From Deltaproteobacteria bacterium (lineage in GTDB: Bacteria; Desulfobacterota; Binatia; HRBIN30): 34,061 bases of DNA. Under the pieces are notes generated by a model. It saw only the letters and a list, made by a program, of their open reading frames with translations. It had not been told where the DNA came from and ran no database searches. The stretch is taken from NCBI GenBank assembly GCA_016200585.1, contig JACQEN010000097.1, positions 1 through 34,061 on the forward strand, in the 5' to 3' direction. The stretch's first letter is position 1; each line of letters starts with the position of its first letter. A program made the translations under genes and the position numbers. Shown here in pieces: positions 26,365 to 34,061 of the stretch.

Positions 26365-26491
26365 CGGGCCGCCAGCTAAAGCGGGATTGCCCAGTTGTGT
26401 CAACTCAGATTCTCGCCAGCTGCGCCTCGCACAGCGGTTTACAGGAGGGCACCCGTTGCTCGGTCACCTTCCGAGTGCGATAGGAGACCAG

Positions 26492-27532
26492 ATGTTCTGG
26501 CACCGCATCGCGGTCGATCTCGGTACAACGTATTCACTCGTCTACACGGAAGACAACGGGCTCGTGCTGCGTGAGCCTTCCGCCGTCGCCATGCAGCGCA
26601 ACACCGGTGAGGCCATCGCGTTCGGCGAACGGGCGCGCACGATGCTCGGACGCGCTCCGGAGTTTATCGACGTGGTGCGCCCGCTCAGTGACGGTGTGAT
26701 CGCGAACTTCGGTGCGGCGCGTGCCCTGCTGGCGCACTACATCCGCGAAGCGTCGCGGCGCCACCGCTTGAGCCGCAAGCACATCATCGTCTGCGTGCCC
26801 TTTGGCGCGACCTCGGTGGAAATGGAAGCACTGGTGCGCGAGGCGGAAGCCGCCGGCGGCAATCGCGTCGACCTGGTACGCGAGCCGTTTGCCGCCGCTT
26901 TGGGTGCCGGCCTGCCGATTCAAGAACCGCGCGGCAACTTGGTCATCGATATCGGCGGCGGCACGACGGAAGTGACCTCGCTGGCGCTCAACGACGTGGT
27001 TCACTGCGAGTCGCTGCGCATGGCGGGCAATGCCATGGATCAGGCGGTGCAAGCCTTTTTCCGCAACCGCTACAACTTTTCGATCGGCGAAAATACCGCC
27101 GAGCAGATCAAGATTCAGTACGGCGGCGTCTACGCCAACGGCACTGCCGATGCCACCTTCGAAGTGAAGGGCCTCAATCAGCGGACGGGAAAGCCGGAGC
27201 GTTTGCTCATGCGCATCTCCGAGGTGCAGGAGGCACTCGAATCGGTGGCGCGCCAGATCACCGATGCGATCCGGCGCTGCGTCGAGCGCTTGTCACCCGA
27301 GCTTGCCGCCGATGTCTTTACCGACGGCGCCGCGATGGTCGGCGGCGGCGCCTTGCTGCGCGGCTGGCCGCAGCGTCTGCACGAAGCCATGGGGTTGAAG
27401 GTGCGTATCAGCAAGGACCCGTTGCTGTGCGTCATGAGCGGGCTGATCGAGATCTTGAAGAACCGCGACCGCTACGAAGAATTGATCGCCAACTCGCAAG
27501 TCCGCCCGTCGCTCGAAGAAGAGCGCGGCTGA
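26492..27532 (+). CDS. mreB: MreB-like actin homologue
   Basis: A 346-residue MreB-type protein with AGGAGA just before ATG 26492. The actin/Hsp70 ATPase parts are all visible: phosphate-1 loop VDLGTTYSLVY, SDGVIANFGAARAL, VCVPFGATSVE, phosphate-2 loop VIDIGGGTTEVTSLAL, REPFAAALGAG, GENTAEQIK and the adenosine motif MVGGGALLRGW. MreB filaments guide cell-wall synthesis in rod-shaped cells. It lies alone, without mreC or mreD, beside a divergent VCBS gene and convergent with the metal-uptake operon, so it may be a second MreB. The N-terminus MFWHRIAV could be a short amphipathic membrane anchor. Confidence 0.85.
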   Translation: MFWHRIAVDLGTTYSLVYTEDNGLVLREPSAVAMQRNTGEAIAFGERARTMLGRAPEFIDVVRPLSDGVIANFGAARALLAHYIREASRRHRLSRKHIIVCVPFGATSVEMEALVREAEAAGGNRVDLVREPFAAALGAGLPIQEPRGNLVIDIGGGTTEVTSLALNDVVHCESLRMAGNAMDQAVQAFFRNRYNFSIGENTAEQIKIQYGGVYANGTADATFEVKGLNQRTGKPERLLMRISEVQEALESVARQITDAIRRCVERLSPELAADVFTDGAAMVGGGALLRGWPQRLHEAMGLKVRISKDPLLCVMSGLIEILKNRDRYEELIANSQVRPSLEEERG

Positions 27533-27541
27533 AGGGCGGCG

Positions 27542-28180
27542 TCAGCGAACCCCATCCGCGAACGGCGCGAGGAGGTTCGTGATCACTTCGTCGGCGGCTA
27601 AGGCGTATGCATCAGCGACGCTGACCACGCCGGGAGTCAGAATGGGGCGGGCTGGATGAGAAGCCGTCCACAAGATCCGCCCCGACGTGGCCTCGACGAG
27701 CGACACGTCGACCACTGCGATCACGAAGCTCGGATGAAACGAAGCCTCCGTTTCCCACCGCCGGATCTCGATGTACAAGGCGACGTCAGCGAGGTGACGC
27801 GATGCGACGTAGTGCGCTGCGCTCTGTGGATCGCTAGGGACTGTGGCGGCCTCTTCCGACGCGATGACGTGGAAACCGTCTTGCGTGAGGTGTTCGCTTG
27901 CTTCGGCAGTCAAGATGTCGGCGACCGCGGTTCGATCGCTGTGCCAGGCGTATTGCTCCAAGAACGAAGCGCCCCCGATCAATAGATCGTCGCCCGTTCG
28001 GTTGTTCGTGGGAAGTACCGCGATGCTGCGACTAGTCAAACCCGTTGGAAGCGCCGAGCGAGTAGCAGGAGCACAAGCGGATATCAGAAGGAGCATAAGA
28101 ATGGCGGCGGCGGTGTTTCGGTAGCGTCTTGTCGGGCGACCAATCGCGAGGCGGTCTGGGGGATTGGGGAAGGTGTTCAT
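27542..28180 (-). CDS. Lipoprotein, GNA1162 (DUF799)-like
   Basis: A 212-residue lipoprotein. The signal ends in the lipobox ISAC (AAAILMLLLISACAP). The body resembles GNA1162-family lipoproteins: SIAVLPTNNRTGDD, a predicted helix, LADVALYIEIRRWE, SFVIAVVDVSLVEATSGRILWTAS. ATG 28180 overlaps the stop of the preceding gene (ATGA) and has AAAGGAG upstream, so translation is coupled. It is the last gene of the metal-uptake operon, which suggests a role at the outer membrane in the same task. The assignment to GNA1162/DUF799 is by recall of pattern and not certain. Confidence 0.7.
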   Translation of the reverse strand: MNTFPNPPDRLAIGRPTRRYRNTAAAILMLLLISACAPATRSALPTGLTSRSIAVLPTNNRTGDDLLIGGASFLEQYAWHSDRTAVADILTAEASEHLTQDGFHVIASEEAATVPSDPQSAAHYVASRHLADVALYIEIRRWETEASFHPSFVIAVVDVSLVEATSGRILWTASHPARPILTPGVVSVADAYALAADEVITNLLAPFADGVR

Positions 28181-30762
28181 TTCGGCTCCTTTGCTGCGCG
28201 CACGTCGTCGAGACGCCGCTGAACGGCTTCGATTTGTTGTTGCAGACTTGTTTGCTCGCTTCGTAGGCGGTCGAAAGTGGCGCGCGCAGCGGCGAGCGCG
28301 CGCGGTTGACTTGCGTCCGCTGCGGCAACGACCTCCGGCACCAGGCGGCTGACCTCCGTTTGCAGCGCCGCCGCTCGTGCTGCGTCACCGCCGGTGGCGG
28401 CCACGGCGTAACGATACAGCTGCGTGCCGGCGCGGCTGGCGTCGCGTGTGGCGTCGGACTCTGGAACCAATGACGGTGCGGACGCCGGTGTCGCTTGCAG
28501 TGCATCGTACAGCGTCGCCAACGGCTCGCCGGTGAACCAATCTTTGTCGCCGTTCGCGTTGATGCGCGTCAGACGCGGCGCTTCAAACTCGAGCAACGGC
28601 CGGTCGTCGGTGTTGAGCGTCGAGCCTGTGAAGAGAGCGGCGCTACTGCTGATGTCGCCGGCATACAGCATCGCTAGCCCGCGCTCCGACGCCAGCAGCA
28701 CGTCCTCGCTCCACGCGGGTAGGTTGCGCACACGTTCGGCCGCTCGTGCCAGATCGATCGACCAGGGTGTGAGTTGGGCGACCAGACCGACCACCGGCCG
28801 GTCGGCGTAGAAGTCGGCCCGCCACAACGTCAGGCGCGGAAACACGCTGAGCATCGTGCGCGTGATCAAGTCGAACTCGTCGCGTGTCAGCTGATACAGC
28901 GGCAGCCATTGGCAGAACAAACCGCCGGGCGTGAGGCGGCGGGCCACGTTCTCGTACATCTCGCGCGAATACATACTACCCGCGCCGGCGTGCCAGGGGA
29001 CGAATAGGTCGGAGACGATCACGTCGAACGGTTCGCCGGGTGCGGCCAGATAGTGCCGCCCGTCGCCGACGATGACATGCACATCGGGACGATCGAGGAG
29101 ATCCCCATTCTGGATTGCGAAAAACCGCTTTGCTGCTGCCACGACCTCGGGAACCAGCTCAATGATGGTCGTGTCGGTTACCGCAAGTGCTGGCGCTGCA
29201 CTTGCCGTGATTCCGGTTGCCAGGCCGACGAACAACGCCCGTCGCGGCAGCGGGTGAAGCAGCAGAGGTACGAGCCCGAGTCGGCGTTCGCCTGCCGCCG
29301 CCGCGCTGCCCCCAAGCAGGTAGTAGTTGTCCAACTTCAACTGCAGGTCGTCTGCGGTGCGAACGACCGTTACGATGCCGCTCGACCCTTCGCGGGTCGA
29401 GAGCAAGGTTTCGCCTTGTGTTTGCAAATGGACGATGGGCGCGCGCATCGGGTTGGCGATGAAGACGAAAAGCAGAACGGCATATGCGACAAGTCGCCAC
29501 GCGACAGGTCGCCACCCGTCGAGTTTCTGCCGCCGTGCGTTTAGCACGAGCACTTCGGCAAGGGCGACGTACGATACGGCCGCGGCCATGAGCGTTCCGC
29601 GCACACCGATTGTGGGGACGAGGACGAAGCCTGTCGCGAGCGCCCCGGCTACGCCGCCGAAGGTGTTCGCCGCCGCGAGGTCACCGAGTGGCCGGGCGGC
29701 TCCTTCGTTGGCGCCCCAGATTTCCCACAACGACGGCAGCACCGCACCGGATGCGAGGGCTGCGGGGCCGGCGCAGAGCGCAGCTAGAGCGACGATGCGG
29801 GCGATATACTCATCTAGACCCGAGAGCATGCCGAAATAGGCGAGACCGTTGGTGCGCCAGACAAAGAGCCAGAAGCCAGTCACCGTAAGAAACCCACTGG
29901 CGATCAAGGCTGCGGTTGCAATTCGTAGCGCTGCTTCACGATATGCCGTCGATGCGGCGATGAAGGCTCCGCCGGCGATGGCGACGAGGAAGACCAGCGC
30001 GATGGCGCTAAACGAATACACCGAGTTGTGCAGCACCTGGGCGAACATCCGCGTCCACACCACCTCGAGGGCCAGAGCCAAGGCTCCGGTTCCGGCAGCG
30101 ACGATTCGCAGTCGCCACCGGAAGGCGTTGCGGTGGTTGCTGCAATTGGCTGGAGCGGTTGGGGCTGGTGCGGCAAGCGTCGGGTGACGGTACCCAACGA
30201 TCAAGGCGATTACACCGGCCGAGGCGCTAGAGCTCGCGACCAGGAGATAGCTCGCGTGCACGCCGATGGCTGCCGGAAGTGTAAACCCGGTGGCGGCGAC
30301 TCCGGCGACCCCACCGAGTGTGTTGAGCCCGTACAGCATCCCGCCGCGCCGCCCGGCCGACTGGGCGGCCAGCACCTGGCCGATGGCCGGCAGCGACGCG
30401 CCGAGACAGAGAGTCGCGGGCAACAGGGCGGCGACAACCACGGCAATCTGGGAACCGGCACCGGCTTCGGCCAGCCAGGCCTGCGCCTCGGCACGATCGA
30501 CAGTCTGAAATAGAAAGAGGGACCATGCGGCGCCCGCGGCGGTGCCGACTTCGAGCCAGCCATAAAGCCGTATGGGCCGAGATACGGTCGTGCGCGCACA
30601 TGCGGCGCCAATACCCAGTCCGGCGAAGTAGCTCGACAGTACCGCGGCCGTCGTTGTCGCCGTCTGGCCCATGACCAGTCCCGCGGAACGCATCCACAAC
30701 ATTTCTAACGCCAAGGCAGAGGCGCCGGAAAGCGTGAAACACAACCACAGGATCGTGGTCAC
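28177..30762 (-). CDS. Membrane protein fused to a spermidine-synthase-like domain
   Basis: An 861-residue protein. GTG 30762 overlaps the stop of znuB (GTGA); an open extension to 31185 only repeats antisense of znuB and is rejected. The N-terminal half has many membrane helices with an internal duplication (ALALEMLWMRS and ALALEVVWTRM), the MFS-like layout of fused MFS/spermidine synthases. The C-terminal half is a SAM-type Rossmann domain: LFVGLATGITASAA, IIELVPEVVAAAKRFF, VHVIVGDGRHYL, FDVIVSDLF. It ends in a coiled coil. Spermidine synthases move aminopropyl groups from decarboxylated SAM. The location inside a zinc-type uptake operon is unusual. Confidence 0.85.
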   Translation of the reverse strand: MTTILWLCFTLSGASALALEMLWMRSAGLVMGQTATTTAAVLSSYFAGLGIGAACARTTVSRPIRLYGWLEVGTAAGAAWSLFLFQTVDRAEAQAWLAEAGAGSQIAVVVAALLPATLCLGASLPAIGQVLAAQSAGRRGGMLYGLNTLGGVAGVAATGFTLPAAIGVHASYLLVASSSASAGVIALIVGYRHPTLAAPAPTAPANCSNHRNAFRWRLRIVAAGTGALALALEVVWTRMFAQVLHNSVYSFSAIALVFLVAIAGGAFIAASTAYREAALRIATAALIASGFLTVTGFWLFVWRTNGLAYFGMLSGLDEYIARIVALAALCAGPAALASGAVLPSLWEIWGANEGAARPLGDLAAANTFGGVAGALATGFVLVPTIGVRGTLMAAAVSYVALAEVLVLNARRQKLDGWRPVAWRLVAYAVLLFVFIANPMRAPIVHLQTQGETLLSTREGSSGIVTVVRTADDLQLKLDNYYLLGGSAAAAGERRLGLVPLLLHPLPRRALFVGLATGITASAAPALAVTDTTIIELVPEVVAAAKRFFAIQNGDLLDRPDVHVIVGDGRHYLAAPGEPFDVIVSDLFVPWHAGAGSMYSREMYENVARRLTPGGLFCQWLPLYQLTRDEFDLITRTMLSVFPRLTLWRADFYADRPVVGLVAQLTPWSIDLARAAERVRNLPAWSEDVLLASERGLAMLYAGDISSSAALFTGSTLNTDDRPLLEFEAPRLTRINANGDKDWFTGEPLATLYDALQATPASAPSLVPESDATRDASRAGTQLYRYAVAATGGDAARAAALQTEVSRLVPEVVAAADASQPRALAAARATFDRLRSEQTSLQQQIEAVQRRLDDVRAAKEPK

Positions 30763-31637
30763 GTACCCCGCCGGCCAATCGCCCGCCGCAGGCCGCTCCC
30801 TCCGGCAACGACGGCCAAAGCGATGCTCGCCAGGGCGACCTCCGCAGGTCCGAGCGGCAGGTCGAAGCGGTAGGCGCAGTAGAAGCCTCCAAATGCGGTC
30901 AAGGCGCCCAGCGCAGCGGCGCCGAGTGAAAAGGTGAGCATACGGCCGGCGATCAAGTGCATGGTAACCGGCGGAACGATCAGGAACCCAAAGGTGGCGA
31001 TTGGCCCGGCCGTCATCACCCCGAGAGAAATGACGACGCCCGTCAGCAGGTAGAGCACGAGGTCCCACAACCCAGGACGCTTGCCGAAAACGACGGCCAG
31101 ATCGCGATCGAACGATACCAGCAACAATTCCTTGCGAAAGGCAAATAGCGCGAAAACGACTGCAGCGAAGATTGCGGCCATCCAAACGAGGCTCGTGCCG
31201 GTGGTTGCCAGGATGTCACCTCTGAGCAGGTGAACCAACTGCGCCTCGCCGTGTGGATCCTTCGCCAGCAACAGAATCGTTGCCGCGGCGGCGATCGCAT
31301 ACGCCGTACCGATACGCGCTTCCACCATGGCGCGTCGTTGCTCGAAGTAGGCAAGGATGATCGTTGCGGCAAGCGTGAAGGTGAACGATCCGATCAGTGC
31401 CAGCACGCGTTCGCTCAACTGAAAGGGTTCATGTGGCCCGACAACAACGTTGAAGACGAGAAAAGCGAAGGCAATGCCAGCCGACGATACTTGCGGCAAT
31501 GCCACTCCAAGAAACACCATGCGTCGCAGCACGAAGTAAACTCCCACCAGCGGGCACACGAGACCGACGAGGACGCTGGCCACGAGTGCGTCACGCAGCA
31601 GGAAGTCAGGGCTCAGAATCTGCAACAGCGTGTCCAT
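30759..31637 (-). CDS. znuB: Zinc/manganese-type ABC transporter permease (ABC-3 family)
   Basis: A 292-residue permease with eight or so membrane helices. It shows the ABC-3 pattern: LVGLVCPLVGVYFVLRRMVFLGVAL, here cited as YFVLRRMVFLG, then ALPQVSSAGIAFAF, RIGTAYAIAAAATI, LLRGDILAT, ISLGVMTAGPIATFGFL and VPPVTMHLIA. Family members carry Zn2+, Mn2+ or Fe2+ into the cytoplasm with a ZnuA-like binding protein and a ZnuC-like ATPase; which metal cannot be read from this subunit. ATG 31637 lies 9 bases after the ATPase stop, and its own stop overlaps the next gene by four bases. Confidence 0.9.
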   Translation of the reverse strand: MDTLLQILSPDFLLRDALVASVLVGLVCPLVGVYFVLRRMVFLGVALPQVSSAGIAFAFLVFNVVVGPHEPFQLSERVLALIGSFTFTLAATIILAYFEQRRAMVEARIGTAYAIAAAATILLLAKDPHGEAQLVHLLRGDILATTGTSLVWMAAIFAAVVFALFAFRKELLLVSFDRDLAVVFGKRPGLWDLVLYLLTGVVISLGVMTAGPIATFGFLIVPPVTMHLIAGRMLTFSLGAAALGALTAFGGFYCAYRFDLPLGPAEVALASIALAVVAGGSGLRRAIGRRGT

Positions 31638-31646
31638 ACGGTCGAT

Positions 31647-32320
<674 letters not shown>

Positions 32321-32324
<4 letters not shown>

Positions 32325-33241
32325 CCACCTCCCTGCGCGGCCTTGAGCATGGCGTGTAGATCGTAGTCGATCAACCCGACGTAGTTGGTTGCCTCGGGTA
32401 CGCCGTGCACCATTACTGGCAGCTCCACCAGCCTGGCGCCGGTGCGTTGGGCAATGGTTTCGGCCAAGCCCGCGGGGTAGTGGCGTTCGCGAACGACGAT
32501 ATCAGTTTTGTCGCGGCGCATGTGGTCGATGAGATCCTCGATGTGGCCGGGTGTCGGGTCGATTCCGGCGCGGATCTCGATTGTTCCGGCCGTCTCCATT
32601 CCGAAGCGGTCGGCAAAGTAGACCATGTCGGGATGGTAGCTGACGATCTTCTTGCCCTTGAGCGGCGCTGCTTCGCGTTCCCAGCGCGCGATATTCTTGT
32701 CGAGGTCCGCCTGCAACGCTGCGAGGTTGGTTTTGAAGGTGCTTTCGTGTTCGGGGTAGTTGTGTGCGAAGCCTTCCTCCATGGCGCGGGCGGCTTCCTT
32801 CATCGCGACCGGGTCGAGGTTATAGTGCGGGTTACCCATCGGGTGTTGATCGCCAAGGGCGCGATCAATGCGCGTCGGGACGTCGAGGACGCTGACATAT
32901 TTCGAGCAGTCGATGTAACCGTCGGCGTCGCGCACGATCTTGGGGTTGCGCGCGGCTTCCAGTAAGGCCGGAAGGAACGCGTGTTCGATCTCCAGTCCCT
33001 GCAGCACGACCATGTCGGCGCGGTTCAGCAAAACGGCGAAGCTCGGTCTCATCGGTACGGCGTGGATGTCCTCGACGCCCGTCGCAAGAGCGTTCACGTC
33101 GACGAGATCGCCGCCGATACGTTTGGCGAATTCGGCGAGGTCCGGTGTGGTCGCAACGACGTGAAGTTTGTCGGCAGCTGCGGCGATGTTGCCGAGGAGC
33201 AGCACGCCGAGCGAGATCGCAACAGAGAAAAGTCGTTTCAT
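32321..33241 (-). CDS. znuA: ZnuA-like metal-binding periplasmic protein
   Basis: A 306-residue solute-binding protein of the ZnuA/TroA class. Signal peptide: LFSVAISLGVLLLGNIAAAA. Likely ligands are His of VEDIHAVP (near residue 60), His of MGNPHYNLDP and His of IVSYHPDMVYF, with a late Asp/Glu such as in GLIDYDLH. The His/Asp-rich loop of many ZnuA proteins is absent (the loop reads EDIHAVPMRPS), so a manganese preference remains possible. A single Cys (DCSKYV) is notable. ATG 33241 is chosen because AAGGAG lies 8 bases before it; the GTG at 33250 would sit inside that ribosome-binding site. Confidence 0.9.
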
Positions 33242-33249
33242 GGTGGTCA

Positions 33250-33255
33250 CTCCTT
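33250..33255 (-). promoter_or_regulatory. Ribosome-binding site overlapping a stop codon
   Basis: AAGGAG on the minus strand shares bases with the TAA of the outer-membrane gene (TAAGGAG) and lies 8 bases before the znuA ATG at 33241. It fixes the start and implies translational coupling of the two genes. Confidence 0.8.
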
Positions 33256-34060
33256 AGCGGTCGCGGAAACCGTGGACGTGGCTTCCGAGAATGGCGGTCC
33301 ATTGGATGAAGAACTGGTTCTCATGGTTGGTCGGCTGATCGAGATAGGTGTACTCCAGCCGCAGCCGATTGAACTCCGACAGCCAGATCGTGAAGTACGG
33401 CGAGTAGCCTTTGGTGTCGCCCGACCTGCGGCTCATGTCCTGCGCGTAGTCAAACAGGAATCCCGCGTAGTAGCGACGGGTAAGTCGCGCTTCGGCGTAG
33501 CTGTACATGCCCCAGGCGTCGGTGCGGCGGAATACCGGGGTGGGTTCATCACCGACATTCCAGTCTTCCCGGTTGTAGAGCAGCTCGGTGCCCCACACGA
33601 AGCCGTGATACTGGCCTTGCGACAGTGGCGTGTAGCGGTAGGTGAGATCGATTGCCGCCAGATGTCGTCCCTTGCCGTCGCGGATTTGCTCGATGTCGTT
33701 GGCGGTGAACGTATCGACCTTCGGCGTGTACGCGTATGTCGCGCCGAGGTCGATGCTGTTCGAATCGTCGATGGTGAAATAGGTGGCCGGCCTCGCGAGG
33801 TAGGTGAATTTGTCGAAATCCCGTGGCACGCCGTTGTCGACGCGCGTGTTCTCCGCACCCAGCTTGTTGTAGGCGCCGAGGGTAAAGGTCAGATACTGCG
33901 ACAGCGGCGACAGGTAGCTGACTTCGACTCCGTCGGCTTGCGATTCACCGCCGATGAAGCGATCCAAAACCAGCGGTCGATTGACGAACGGCAAGTCGTG
34001 GTCGTGGAACTTTGACAGTCGTCCGAAGTCGGCAAAGAAGCGCCCGCCCTTGACGGTGAG
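33254..34060 (-). CDS. Outer-membrane beta-barrel protein, metal-uptake associated (partial)
   Basis: The frame stays open to the right edge, so the N-terminal part is missing; about 268 residues are visible. The ATG at 33994 is internal. The first visible residues read LTVKGGRFFADFGRLSKFHD then HDLPFVNRPLVLDRFIGGE. The rest is alternating amphipathic strands typical of a barrel (YLTFTLGAYN, NSIDLGATYAYTP, LAAIDLTYRYTP, YYAGFLFDYAQD, NRLRLEYTYLD, NQFFIQWTAILG) and ends in HVHGFRDR. The His/Asp cluster FHDHD fits metal contact. It precedes znuA by 12 bases to the chosen ATG, so it probably provides passage of the metal through the outer membrane; whether it is a TonB-type receptor or a porin is not visible here. 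Confidence 0.75.
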   Translation of the reverse strand, partial: LTVKGGRFFADFGRLSKFHDHDLPFVNRPLVLDRFIGGESQADGVEVSYLSPLSQYLTFTLGAYNKLGAENTRVDNGVPRDFDKFTYLARPATYFTIDDSNSIDLGATYAYTPKVDTFTANDIEQIRDGKGRHLAAIDLTYRYTPLSQGQYHGFVWGTELLYNREDWNVGDEPTPVFRRTDAWGMYSYAEARLTRRYYAGFLFDYAQDMSRRSGDTKGYSPYFTIWLSEFNRLRLEYTYLDQPTNHENQFFIQWTAILGSHVHGFRDR

Positions 34061-34061
34061 G

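What the first reader, a model, noticed from the sequence alone, without database searches (positions are those of the whole stretch)
27542..34061. Zinc-type uptake operon with a membrane-fused spermidine-synthase-like enzyme and a lipoprotein
Seen: six minus-strand genes packed with 4-base overlaps or tiny gaps, in the order outer-membrane barrel, ZnuA, ZnuC, ZnuB, MFS-like plus spermidine-synthase-like fusion, GNA1162-like lipoprotein. Known: ZnuABC import divalent metals; spermidine-synthase-type enzymes transfer aminopropyl groups; opine-type metallophores (staphylopine, pseudopaline) are made by related aminoalkyl-transfer chemistry. Inference: the fusion protein could make and export, or modify, a small metal ligand that the barrel and ZnuABC recover. 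A simpler alternative is that it senses or moves polyamines in response to metal stress.
Basis: partly seen in the sequence, partly recalled or inferred. Interest (0 to 1): 0.68.

Follow-up and report, generated by a model that had tools for sequence, protein, structure and literature searches.

The report
Zinc-uptake operon with unusual membrane enzyme
A bacterial zinc-import operon carries, as a conserved extra gene, a large membrane protein that looks like a spermidine-making enzyme but probably is not one; its closest relatives also sit beside several other kinds of zinc-uptake genes, which ties a protein family of unknown function to zinc nutrition.

Summary
The six-gene operon is real: barrel, znuA, znuC, znuB, fused membrane/spermidine-synthase-like gene, lipoprotein, with 3-9 base gaps or 4-base overlaps. 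The order recurs in relatives; the fusion follows znuB in all five relatives where both lie on one contig. A small His/Cys-rich gene precedes the barrel. ZnuA has a three-histidine, zinc-type site. The fusion belongs to a well-supported 22-member clade (100/99) of fused MFS/spermidine-synthase proteins. Zinc-uptake genes lie nearby for 15 of 21 testable members and for none of 21 other fused proteins: znuABC, ZnuD-type receptors, ZrgA plus CobW-type GTPases. It is probably not a spermidine synthase: Asp101 and Asp173 are replaced, and S-adenosylmethionine decarboxylase was found in only 1 of 13 genomes searched. The barrel is predicted to be a plug-less porin, not a metallophore receptor. Best reading: a zinc-acquisition operon whose fusion is a dedicated accessory, perhaps using SAM itself on a small ligand; that mechanism is inference. 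No Zur box was found, and no paper in the open-access library describes the link.

The parts
33254..34060 (-). Outer-membrane barrel gene, C-terminal 268 aa; the N-terminus lies beyond the contig end (probably on contig C267)
   Evidence: 62% identical to the complete 467-aa homologue in L025; AlphaFold model of that homologue has 16 strands and a porin fold
32321..33250 (-). znuA: zinc-type substrate-binding protein with H63, H142, H206
   Evidence: PF01297 156 bits; best solved relative is an ABC zinc-uptake binding protein, 2ov1/1pq4; the three His are conserved wherever the residue is present in 18 homologues
31647..32324 (-). znuC: ABC ATPase
   Evidence: NCBIfam best AztA 189 bits, below its cut-off of 220; ABC_tran
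30759..31637 (-). znuB: ABC-3 family metal permease
   Evidence: PF00950 120 bits; NCBIfam best AztB
28177..30762 (-). Fused membrane / spermidine-synthase-like protein, 861 aa: two 6-helix repeats (about 1-192, 208-412), a 13th hydrophobic helix (419-436), spermidine-synthase-like domain (about 450-730), C-terminal long helix (809-858)
   Evidence: NF037959; AlphaFold pLDDT 87.5; Foldseek to spermidine synthases; repeat by hhalign E=1e-22
27542..28180 (-). GNA1162-like lipoprotein with lipobox LISAC, last gene of the operon
   Evidence: Weak PF05643 and 4hrv matches; homologues follow the fusion in G034, G091, G090, G089, G145 and G002, and lie after znuB without the fusion in family f5

Best explanation
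This is a zinc-acquisition operon of a Gram-negative bacterium: a porin-type outer-membrane channel, a zinc-binding periplasmic protein and an ABC importer, plus accessories. The fused membrane/spermidine-synthase-like protein belongs to a zinc-associated subfamily of NCBI's 'fused MFS/spermidine synthase' family and works as a dedicated accessory of zinc uptake. Shown by computation: operon structure, conservation of the order, and the clade-wide link to zinc-uptake genes. Inferred: the protein helps zinc capture. Most likely mechanism, a guess of about one in three: the Rossmann domain binds S-adenosylmethionine itself (its cofactor-site residues are kept, the decarboxy-SAM selector is lost) and alters a small amine or amino-acid ligand that the 12-helix domain moves across the inner membrane. 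It is probably not a spermidine synthase.
For: Family assignments. Fusion directly after znuB in G034, G047, G089, G090 and G091; fusion plus lipoprotein at contig edges in G002 and G145. Independent arrangement barrel-znuA-fusion-znuC-znuB-fusion in L079. ZnuD-type TonB receptors near the fusion in L030, L031, L076, L094, L077 and L024; ZrgA plus CobW-type GTPases in L027; ZupT-like gene upstream of the His/Cys-rich gene in L070. 22-member clade, support 100/99; 15 of 21 against 0 of 21, Fisher 1.1e-6, and 9 of 15 against 0 of 21 without the znu subclade. Zinc-type His site in ZnuA. Lost Asp101 and Asp173, kept Asp170, ribose-site Glu and Asp-Gly; meaning of Asp101 from PMC1282579. S-adenosylmethionine decarboxylase in only 1 of 13 Zn-clade genomes and 10 of 143 of the class.
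Against: No Zur box or other shared palindrome upstream. Association counts are not phylogenetically independent, come from one class plus one Zixiibacteriota contig, and the clade was delimited with a window-derived query. Six of 21 testable clade members had no recognised zinc gene in the stretch fetched. Loss of Asp101 is shared with other fused proteins outside the zinc clade, so it is not specific. If the 13th helix spans the membrane, positive-inside charges put the enzyme-like domain in the periplasm, where SAM is not expected. Specificity for zinc over other divalent metals is inferred from residues and neighbours only.
Confidence: 0.6

Rival explanations
1. Metallophore reading: the fusion makes a small zinc ligand (opine- or nicotianamine-like) by aminoalkyl transfer from SAM and exports it; barrel and ZnuABC recover the complex.
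For: SAM-site residues kept, donor-selecting Asp101 lost; fused 12-helix domain; frequent neighbours are outer-membrane receptors.
Against: Barrel is a predicted porin without plug; no nicotianamine synthase homologue; opine dehydrogenase not found, though that search had no positive control; no other biosynthetic gene in the operon; side of the domain uncertain.
Confidence: 0.17
2. Polyamine reading: the fusion is a true spermidine (aminopropyl) synthase or polyamine mover that responds to metal stress.
For: Fold match to spermidine synthases; PF01564 44.9 bits; Asp170 kept.
Against: Asp101 and Asp173 replaced; S-adenosylmethionine decarboxylase in only 1 of 13 genomes searched, with positive controls ringing.
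Confidence: 0.05
3. Non-enzymatic reading: the enzyme-like domain sits in the periplasm and has become a binding or handing-over module for zinc or a zinc complex next to ZnuA, with the 12-helix part as anchor or carrier.
For: Two 6-helix repeats plus a 13th hydrophobic helix; even-numbered loops carry more Lys/Arg than odd ones, which would place the domain outside.
Against: Conserved SAM-site residues G513, G517, E535, D567, G568, D585 suggest a nucleoside cofactor; no obvious invariant metal-ligand cluster.
Confidence: 0.2
4. The operon imports manganese or copper rather than zinc; zinc is a naming habit.
For: ZnuA also matches Mn-binding models; contig C267 upstream carries MbnP and a MauG-type di-haem peroxidase, known from copper loci.
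Against: Three-His site conserved; closest solved relatives are zinc binders; ZnuD-type, ZrgA and ZupT-like genes near relatives.
Confidence: 0.15

Closest known systems
ZnuABC / AztABC zinc importers
   Same: SBP, ATPase and ABC-3 permease, with a zinc-type His site in the SBP
   Different: Scores are below NCBIfam's equivalog cut-offs for ZnuABC and AztABC; extra porin, fusion, lipoprotein and His/Cys-rich gene
Fused MFS/spermidine synthase, NCBIfam NF037959
   Same: Over the cut-off (94 against 40 bits); membrane domain plus spermidine-synthase-like domain
   Different: A distinct clade, most members having QVLHNS and DLF[I/V]PWxxG instead of motifs such as SEPSNPW, and zinc-gene neighbours
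Spermidine synthase SpeE
   Same: Fold of the C-terminal domain; Asp170 equivalent kept
   Different: Asp101 and Asp173 equivalents lost; S-adenosylmethionine decarboxylase mostly not found in these genomes
GNA1162-like lipoproteins (PF05643; solved structure 4hrv)
   Same: Lipobox, length, partial sequence match
   Different: Below Pfam's cut-off; found here tied to zinc operons
OprO/OmpT-type porins
   Same: 16-stranded barrel in the predicted model
   Different: No sequence family match; N-terminal coiled coil; mean pLDDT only 68.6

Membership tests
Zinc ABC importer of the ZnuABC kind | SBP, ATPase and ABC-3 permease encoded together | tested here: met
Zinc ABC importer of the ZnuABC kind | Three-His zinc-type metal site in the SBP | tested here: met
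   H63, H142, H206 conserved wherever present in 18 homologues; aligned with zinc SBPs
Zinc ABC importer of the ZnuABC kind | NCBIfam equivalog cut-off for ZnuA/B/C or AztA/B/C | tested here: not met
   best 189 of 220 bits (AztA)
Zinc ABC importer of the ZnuABC kind | Zur control | tested here: inconclusive
   No palindrome shared by upstream regions; a TTGACA-type promoter recurs
Fused MFS/spermidine synthase (NF037959) | Score over the curated cut-off | tested here: met
   94.3 against 40 bits
Spermidine synthase (aminopropyltransferase) | Asp101, selects decarboxy-SAM (PMC1282579) | tested here: not met
   Thr in the window, Thr/Ser/Ala in homologues
Spermidine synthase (aminopropyltransferase) | Asp170, general base | tested here: met
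   D585, invariant in 18 rows
Spermidine synthase (aminopropyltransferase) | Asp173, amine site (role from memory) | tested here: not met
   Val/Ile/Thr at that position in nearly all clade members
Spermidine synthase (aminopropyltransferase) | Source of decarboxy-SAM in the cell | tested here: not met
   PF02675 in 1 of 13 Zn-clade genomes; own genome 85% complete; eukaryotic-type family PF01536 not searched
Opine metallophore system | Opine dehydrogenase (PF10100) | tested here: inconclusive
   0 of 13, but no control genome rang
Opine metallophore system | Nicotianamine-synthase-like enzyme (PF03059) | tested here: not met
   0 of 13; Methanosarcina control rang
TonB-dependent metallophore receptor (the barrel) | Plug domain and 22-strand barrel | tested here: not met
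   16 strands, no plug family match, porin matches
GNA1162-like lipoprotein (PF05643) | Score over Pfam's cut-off | tested here: not met
   17.9 of 25.9 bits; 4hrv E=0.001

The most novel reading that the evidence does not exclude
A single membrane protein that both makes and moves a zinc ligand: the clade's spermidine-synthase fold takes whole SAM, transfers an aminocarboxypropyl or methyl group to a small molecule, and the fused 12-helix domain exports it, serving several unrelated zinc-uptake systems (ZnuABC, ZnuD-type, ZrgA).
Probability: 0.15. Interest if true: 0.82.

Novelty: new variant of a known kind. Interest (0 to 1): 0.52.

Why it matters
Fused MFS/spermidine-synthase proteins are widespread, usually annotated as polyamine enzymes, and as far as the searches here reached have no tested function. 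A clade whose neighbours are zinc-uptake genes of several unrelated kinds gives this family a concrete, testable role, warns against calling it spermidine synthase, and points to a possibly new step in bacterial zinc nutrition.

Tried and rejected
Viral-contig scan with the fusion: nothing. Genome-contig scan with one sequence as query gave a single relative; an alignment would have reached further. Phylum-wide search found only more distant fused proteins outside the class. Plasmid search gave distant homologues in other settings; two of the four plasmid regions opened had no gene table and were read from ORFs. Zur-box or palindrome search upstream: nothing shared. Literature on fused MFS/spermidine synthase, COG4262, or spermidine synthase with Zur or znuA: nothing relevant; the Burkholderia zinc-starvation paper lists one spermidine synthase as down-regulated, without link to this family. 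The secreted 'GGG' proteins near several fusions matched no Pfam or NCBIfam model where tested.

Full report
WHAT IS THERE. Six minus-strand genes lie at 27542-34060, separated by 3-9 bases or overlapping by 4: barrel, znuA, znuC, znuB, fusion, lipoprotein. The window is the whole of contig C230 of a 5.6-Mb assembly in 369 contigs, so the barrel is cut at its N-terminus. A search of the same genome with the complete barrel of relative G034 found a second contig, C267, whose last 0.6 kb holds a matching small His/Cys-rich ORF and the first 75 or so residues of a barrel protein. The same order, small gene then barrel then znuA, is seen on single contigs in G034, G027, G091, G089 and G008. The join is inferred; roughly 110 residues are missing.

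CONSERVATION. In 148 genomes of the class, the close form of the fusion occurs in G034, G047, G089, G090, G091, G002 and G145 besides the window. Wherever fusion and znu genes are on one contig (five relatives), the fusion directly follows znuB; in G002 and G145 the contig begins inside the fusion, with the lipoprotein following. In family f5 the lipoprotein follows znuB without a fusion, and in f14, f7 and others the barrel-znuACB core stands without a detected lipoprotein or fusion. So barrel-znuACB is the core, and lipoprotein and fusion are separable accessories.

A WIDER LINK TO ZINC. I collected 43 fused proteins with their neighbourhoods, called genes with a simple codon-bias script, and marked zinc genes with phmmer. 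A maximum-likelihood tree puts 22 in one clade, support 100/99, made of a znu subclade of 7 (100/100) and a second of 15 (100/99). Zinc-uptake genes were found near 15 of 21 testable members and near none of the 21 fused proteins outside (Fisher 1.1e-6; without the znu subclade 9 of 15 against 0 of 21, 5e-5). The contexts differ: znuACB after a barrel; barrel-znuA-fusion-znuC-znuB-fusion in G099 (L079); ZnuD as best NCBIfam match of TonB receptors or receptor fragments in L030, L031, L076, L094, L077 and L024; ZrgA with CobW-type GTPases in L027; a ZupT-like gene upstream of the small gene in L070. The counts are not independent, stretches searched vary from about 6 to 34 kb, and all but one clade member come from one class.

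WHICH METAL. The three metal-site histidines of ZnuA, H63, H142 and H206, are kept in every homologue that covers them, and the closest solved relatives are zinc binding proteins. Mn-type binding proteins usually have Glu at the third position (from memory). This favours zinc but is not a measurement.

THE FUSION. AlphaFold gave a confident model (pLDDT 87.5, pTM 0.86). Its C-terminal domain matches spermidine synthases. The membrane part is two homologous 6-helix repeats (hhalign E=1e-22). Against Thermotoga spermidine synthase, the Asp of GGGDG (Asp101) is Thr, the second Asp of DSTDP (Asp173) is Val, while Asp170, the ribose-site Glu and the adenine-site Asp-Gly are kept (site roles other than Asp101 and Asp170 from memory). 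PMC1282579 states that Asp101 keeps out the carboxyl group of SAM and so selects decarboxy-SAM, and that Asp170 is the likely base. S-adenosylmethionine decarboxylase (PF02675) was found in 1 of 13 genomes with the clade and 10 of 143 of the class, while controls rang. Spermidine synthesis is therefore unlikely. Loss of Asp101 also occurs in fused proteins outside the clade, so it does not point to zinc by itself. Charge counts place even-numbered loops inside; a 13th hydrophobic helix, if it spans, puts the enzyme-like domain in the periplasm, at odds with SAM use. This conflict is unresolved.

THE OTHER PARTS. The barrel model (pLDDT 68.6) has 16 strands, no plug, and matches porins such as OmpT and OprO, so uptake through a metallophore receptor is not suggested for this operon. 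The lipoprotein resembles GNA1162 weakly.

VERDICT. What is new is the zinc-associated clade of a protein family without known function; no paper in the open-access library described it, which does not exclude subscription journals.

Noticed in passing
Contig C267 of the same genome (L043 3-6980), probably just upstream of the operon: MbnP-family protein, MauG-type di-haem peroxidase, histidine kinase and response regulator, thioredoxin-like protein and a secreted protein with a CDIC motif; most of this set (CDIC protein, thioredoxin, kinase, peroxidase) also stands near a zinc-clade fusion in L078.
   Followed up: partly
L030 4837-8378 and 13397-15159; L031 4253-5958; L028 7760-8686 and 11467-13872; L078 5353-8327; L079 11648-13831; L092 1964-6144: A family of secreted proteins (opening like IYSTxxGGG, then LHVHPEYQL and LSFRL) clusters around zinc-clade fusions; those tested have no Pfam or NCBIfam match, and some have long His/Asp-rich stretches.
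   Followed up: partly
L043 7070-7375; L025 4490-4771; L081, L069, L070, L086, L093, L030: Small secreted protein with HxH, CxxC and often HSP motifs, weakly DUF2946-like, at the head of these operons and also near the fusion in L093 and L030; looks metal-binding.
   Followed up: partly
L091 (Comamonadaceae plasmid CP099604.1), L100, L101, L104: A sister group of fused proteins with motif DLFHPARDG is preceded by a conserved protein opening GDFHxHT; on the plasmid it is followed by HupE/UreJ, 2OG-Fe oxygenase and PCu(A)C genes.
   Followed up: partly
window 26387-27532 (+): An MreB-family gene convergent with the operon, ending 10 bases from the lipoprotein stop.
   Followed up: no
L070 4535-6556: Three lipoprotein homologues in tandem after the fusion in G089.
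   Followed up: no
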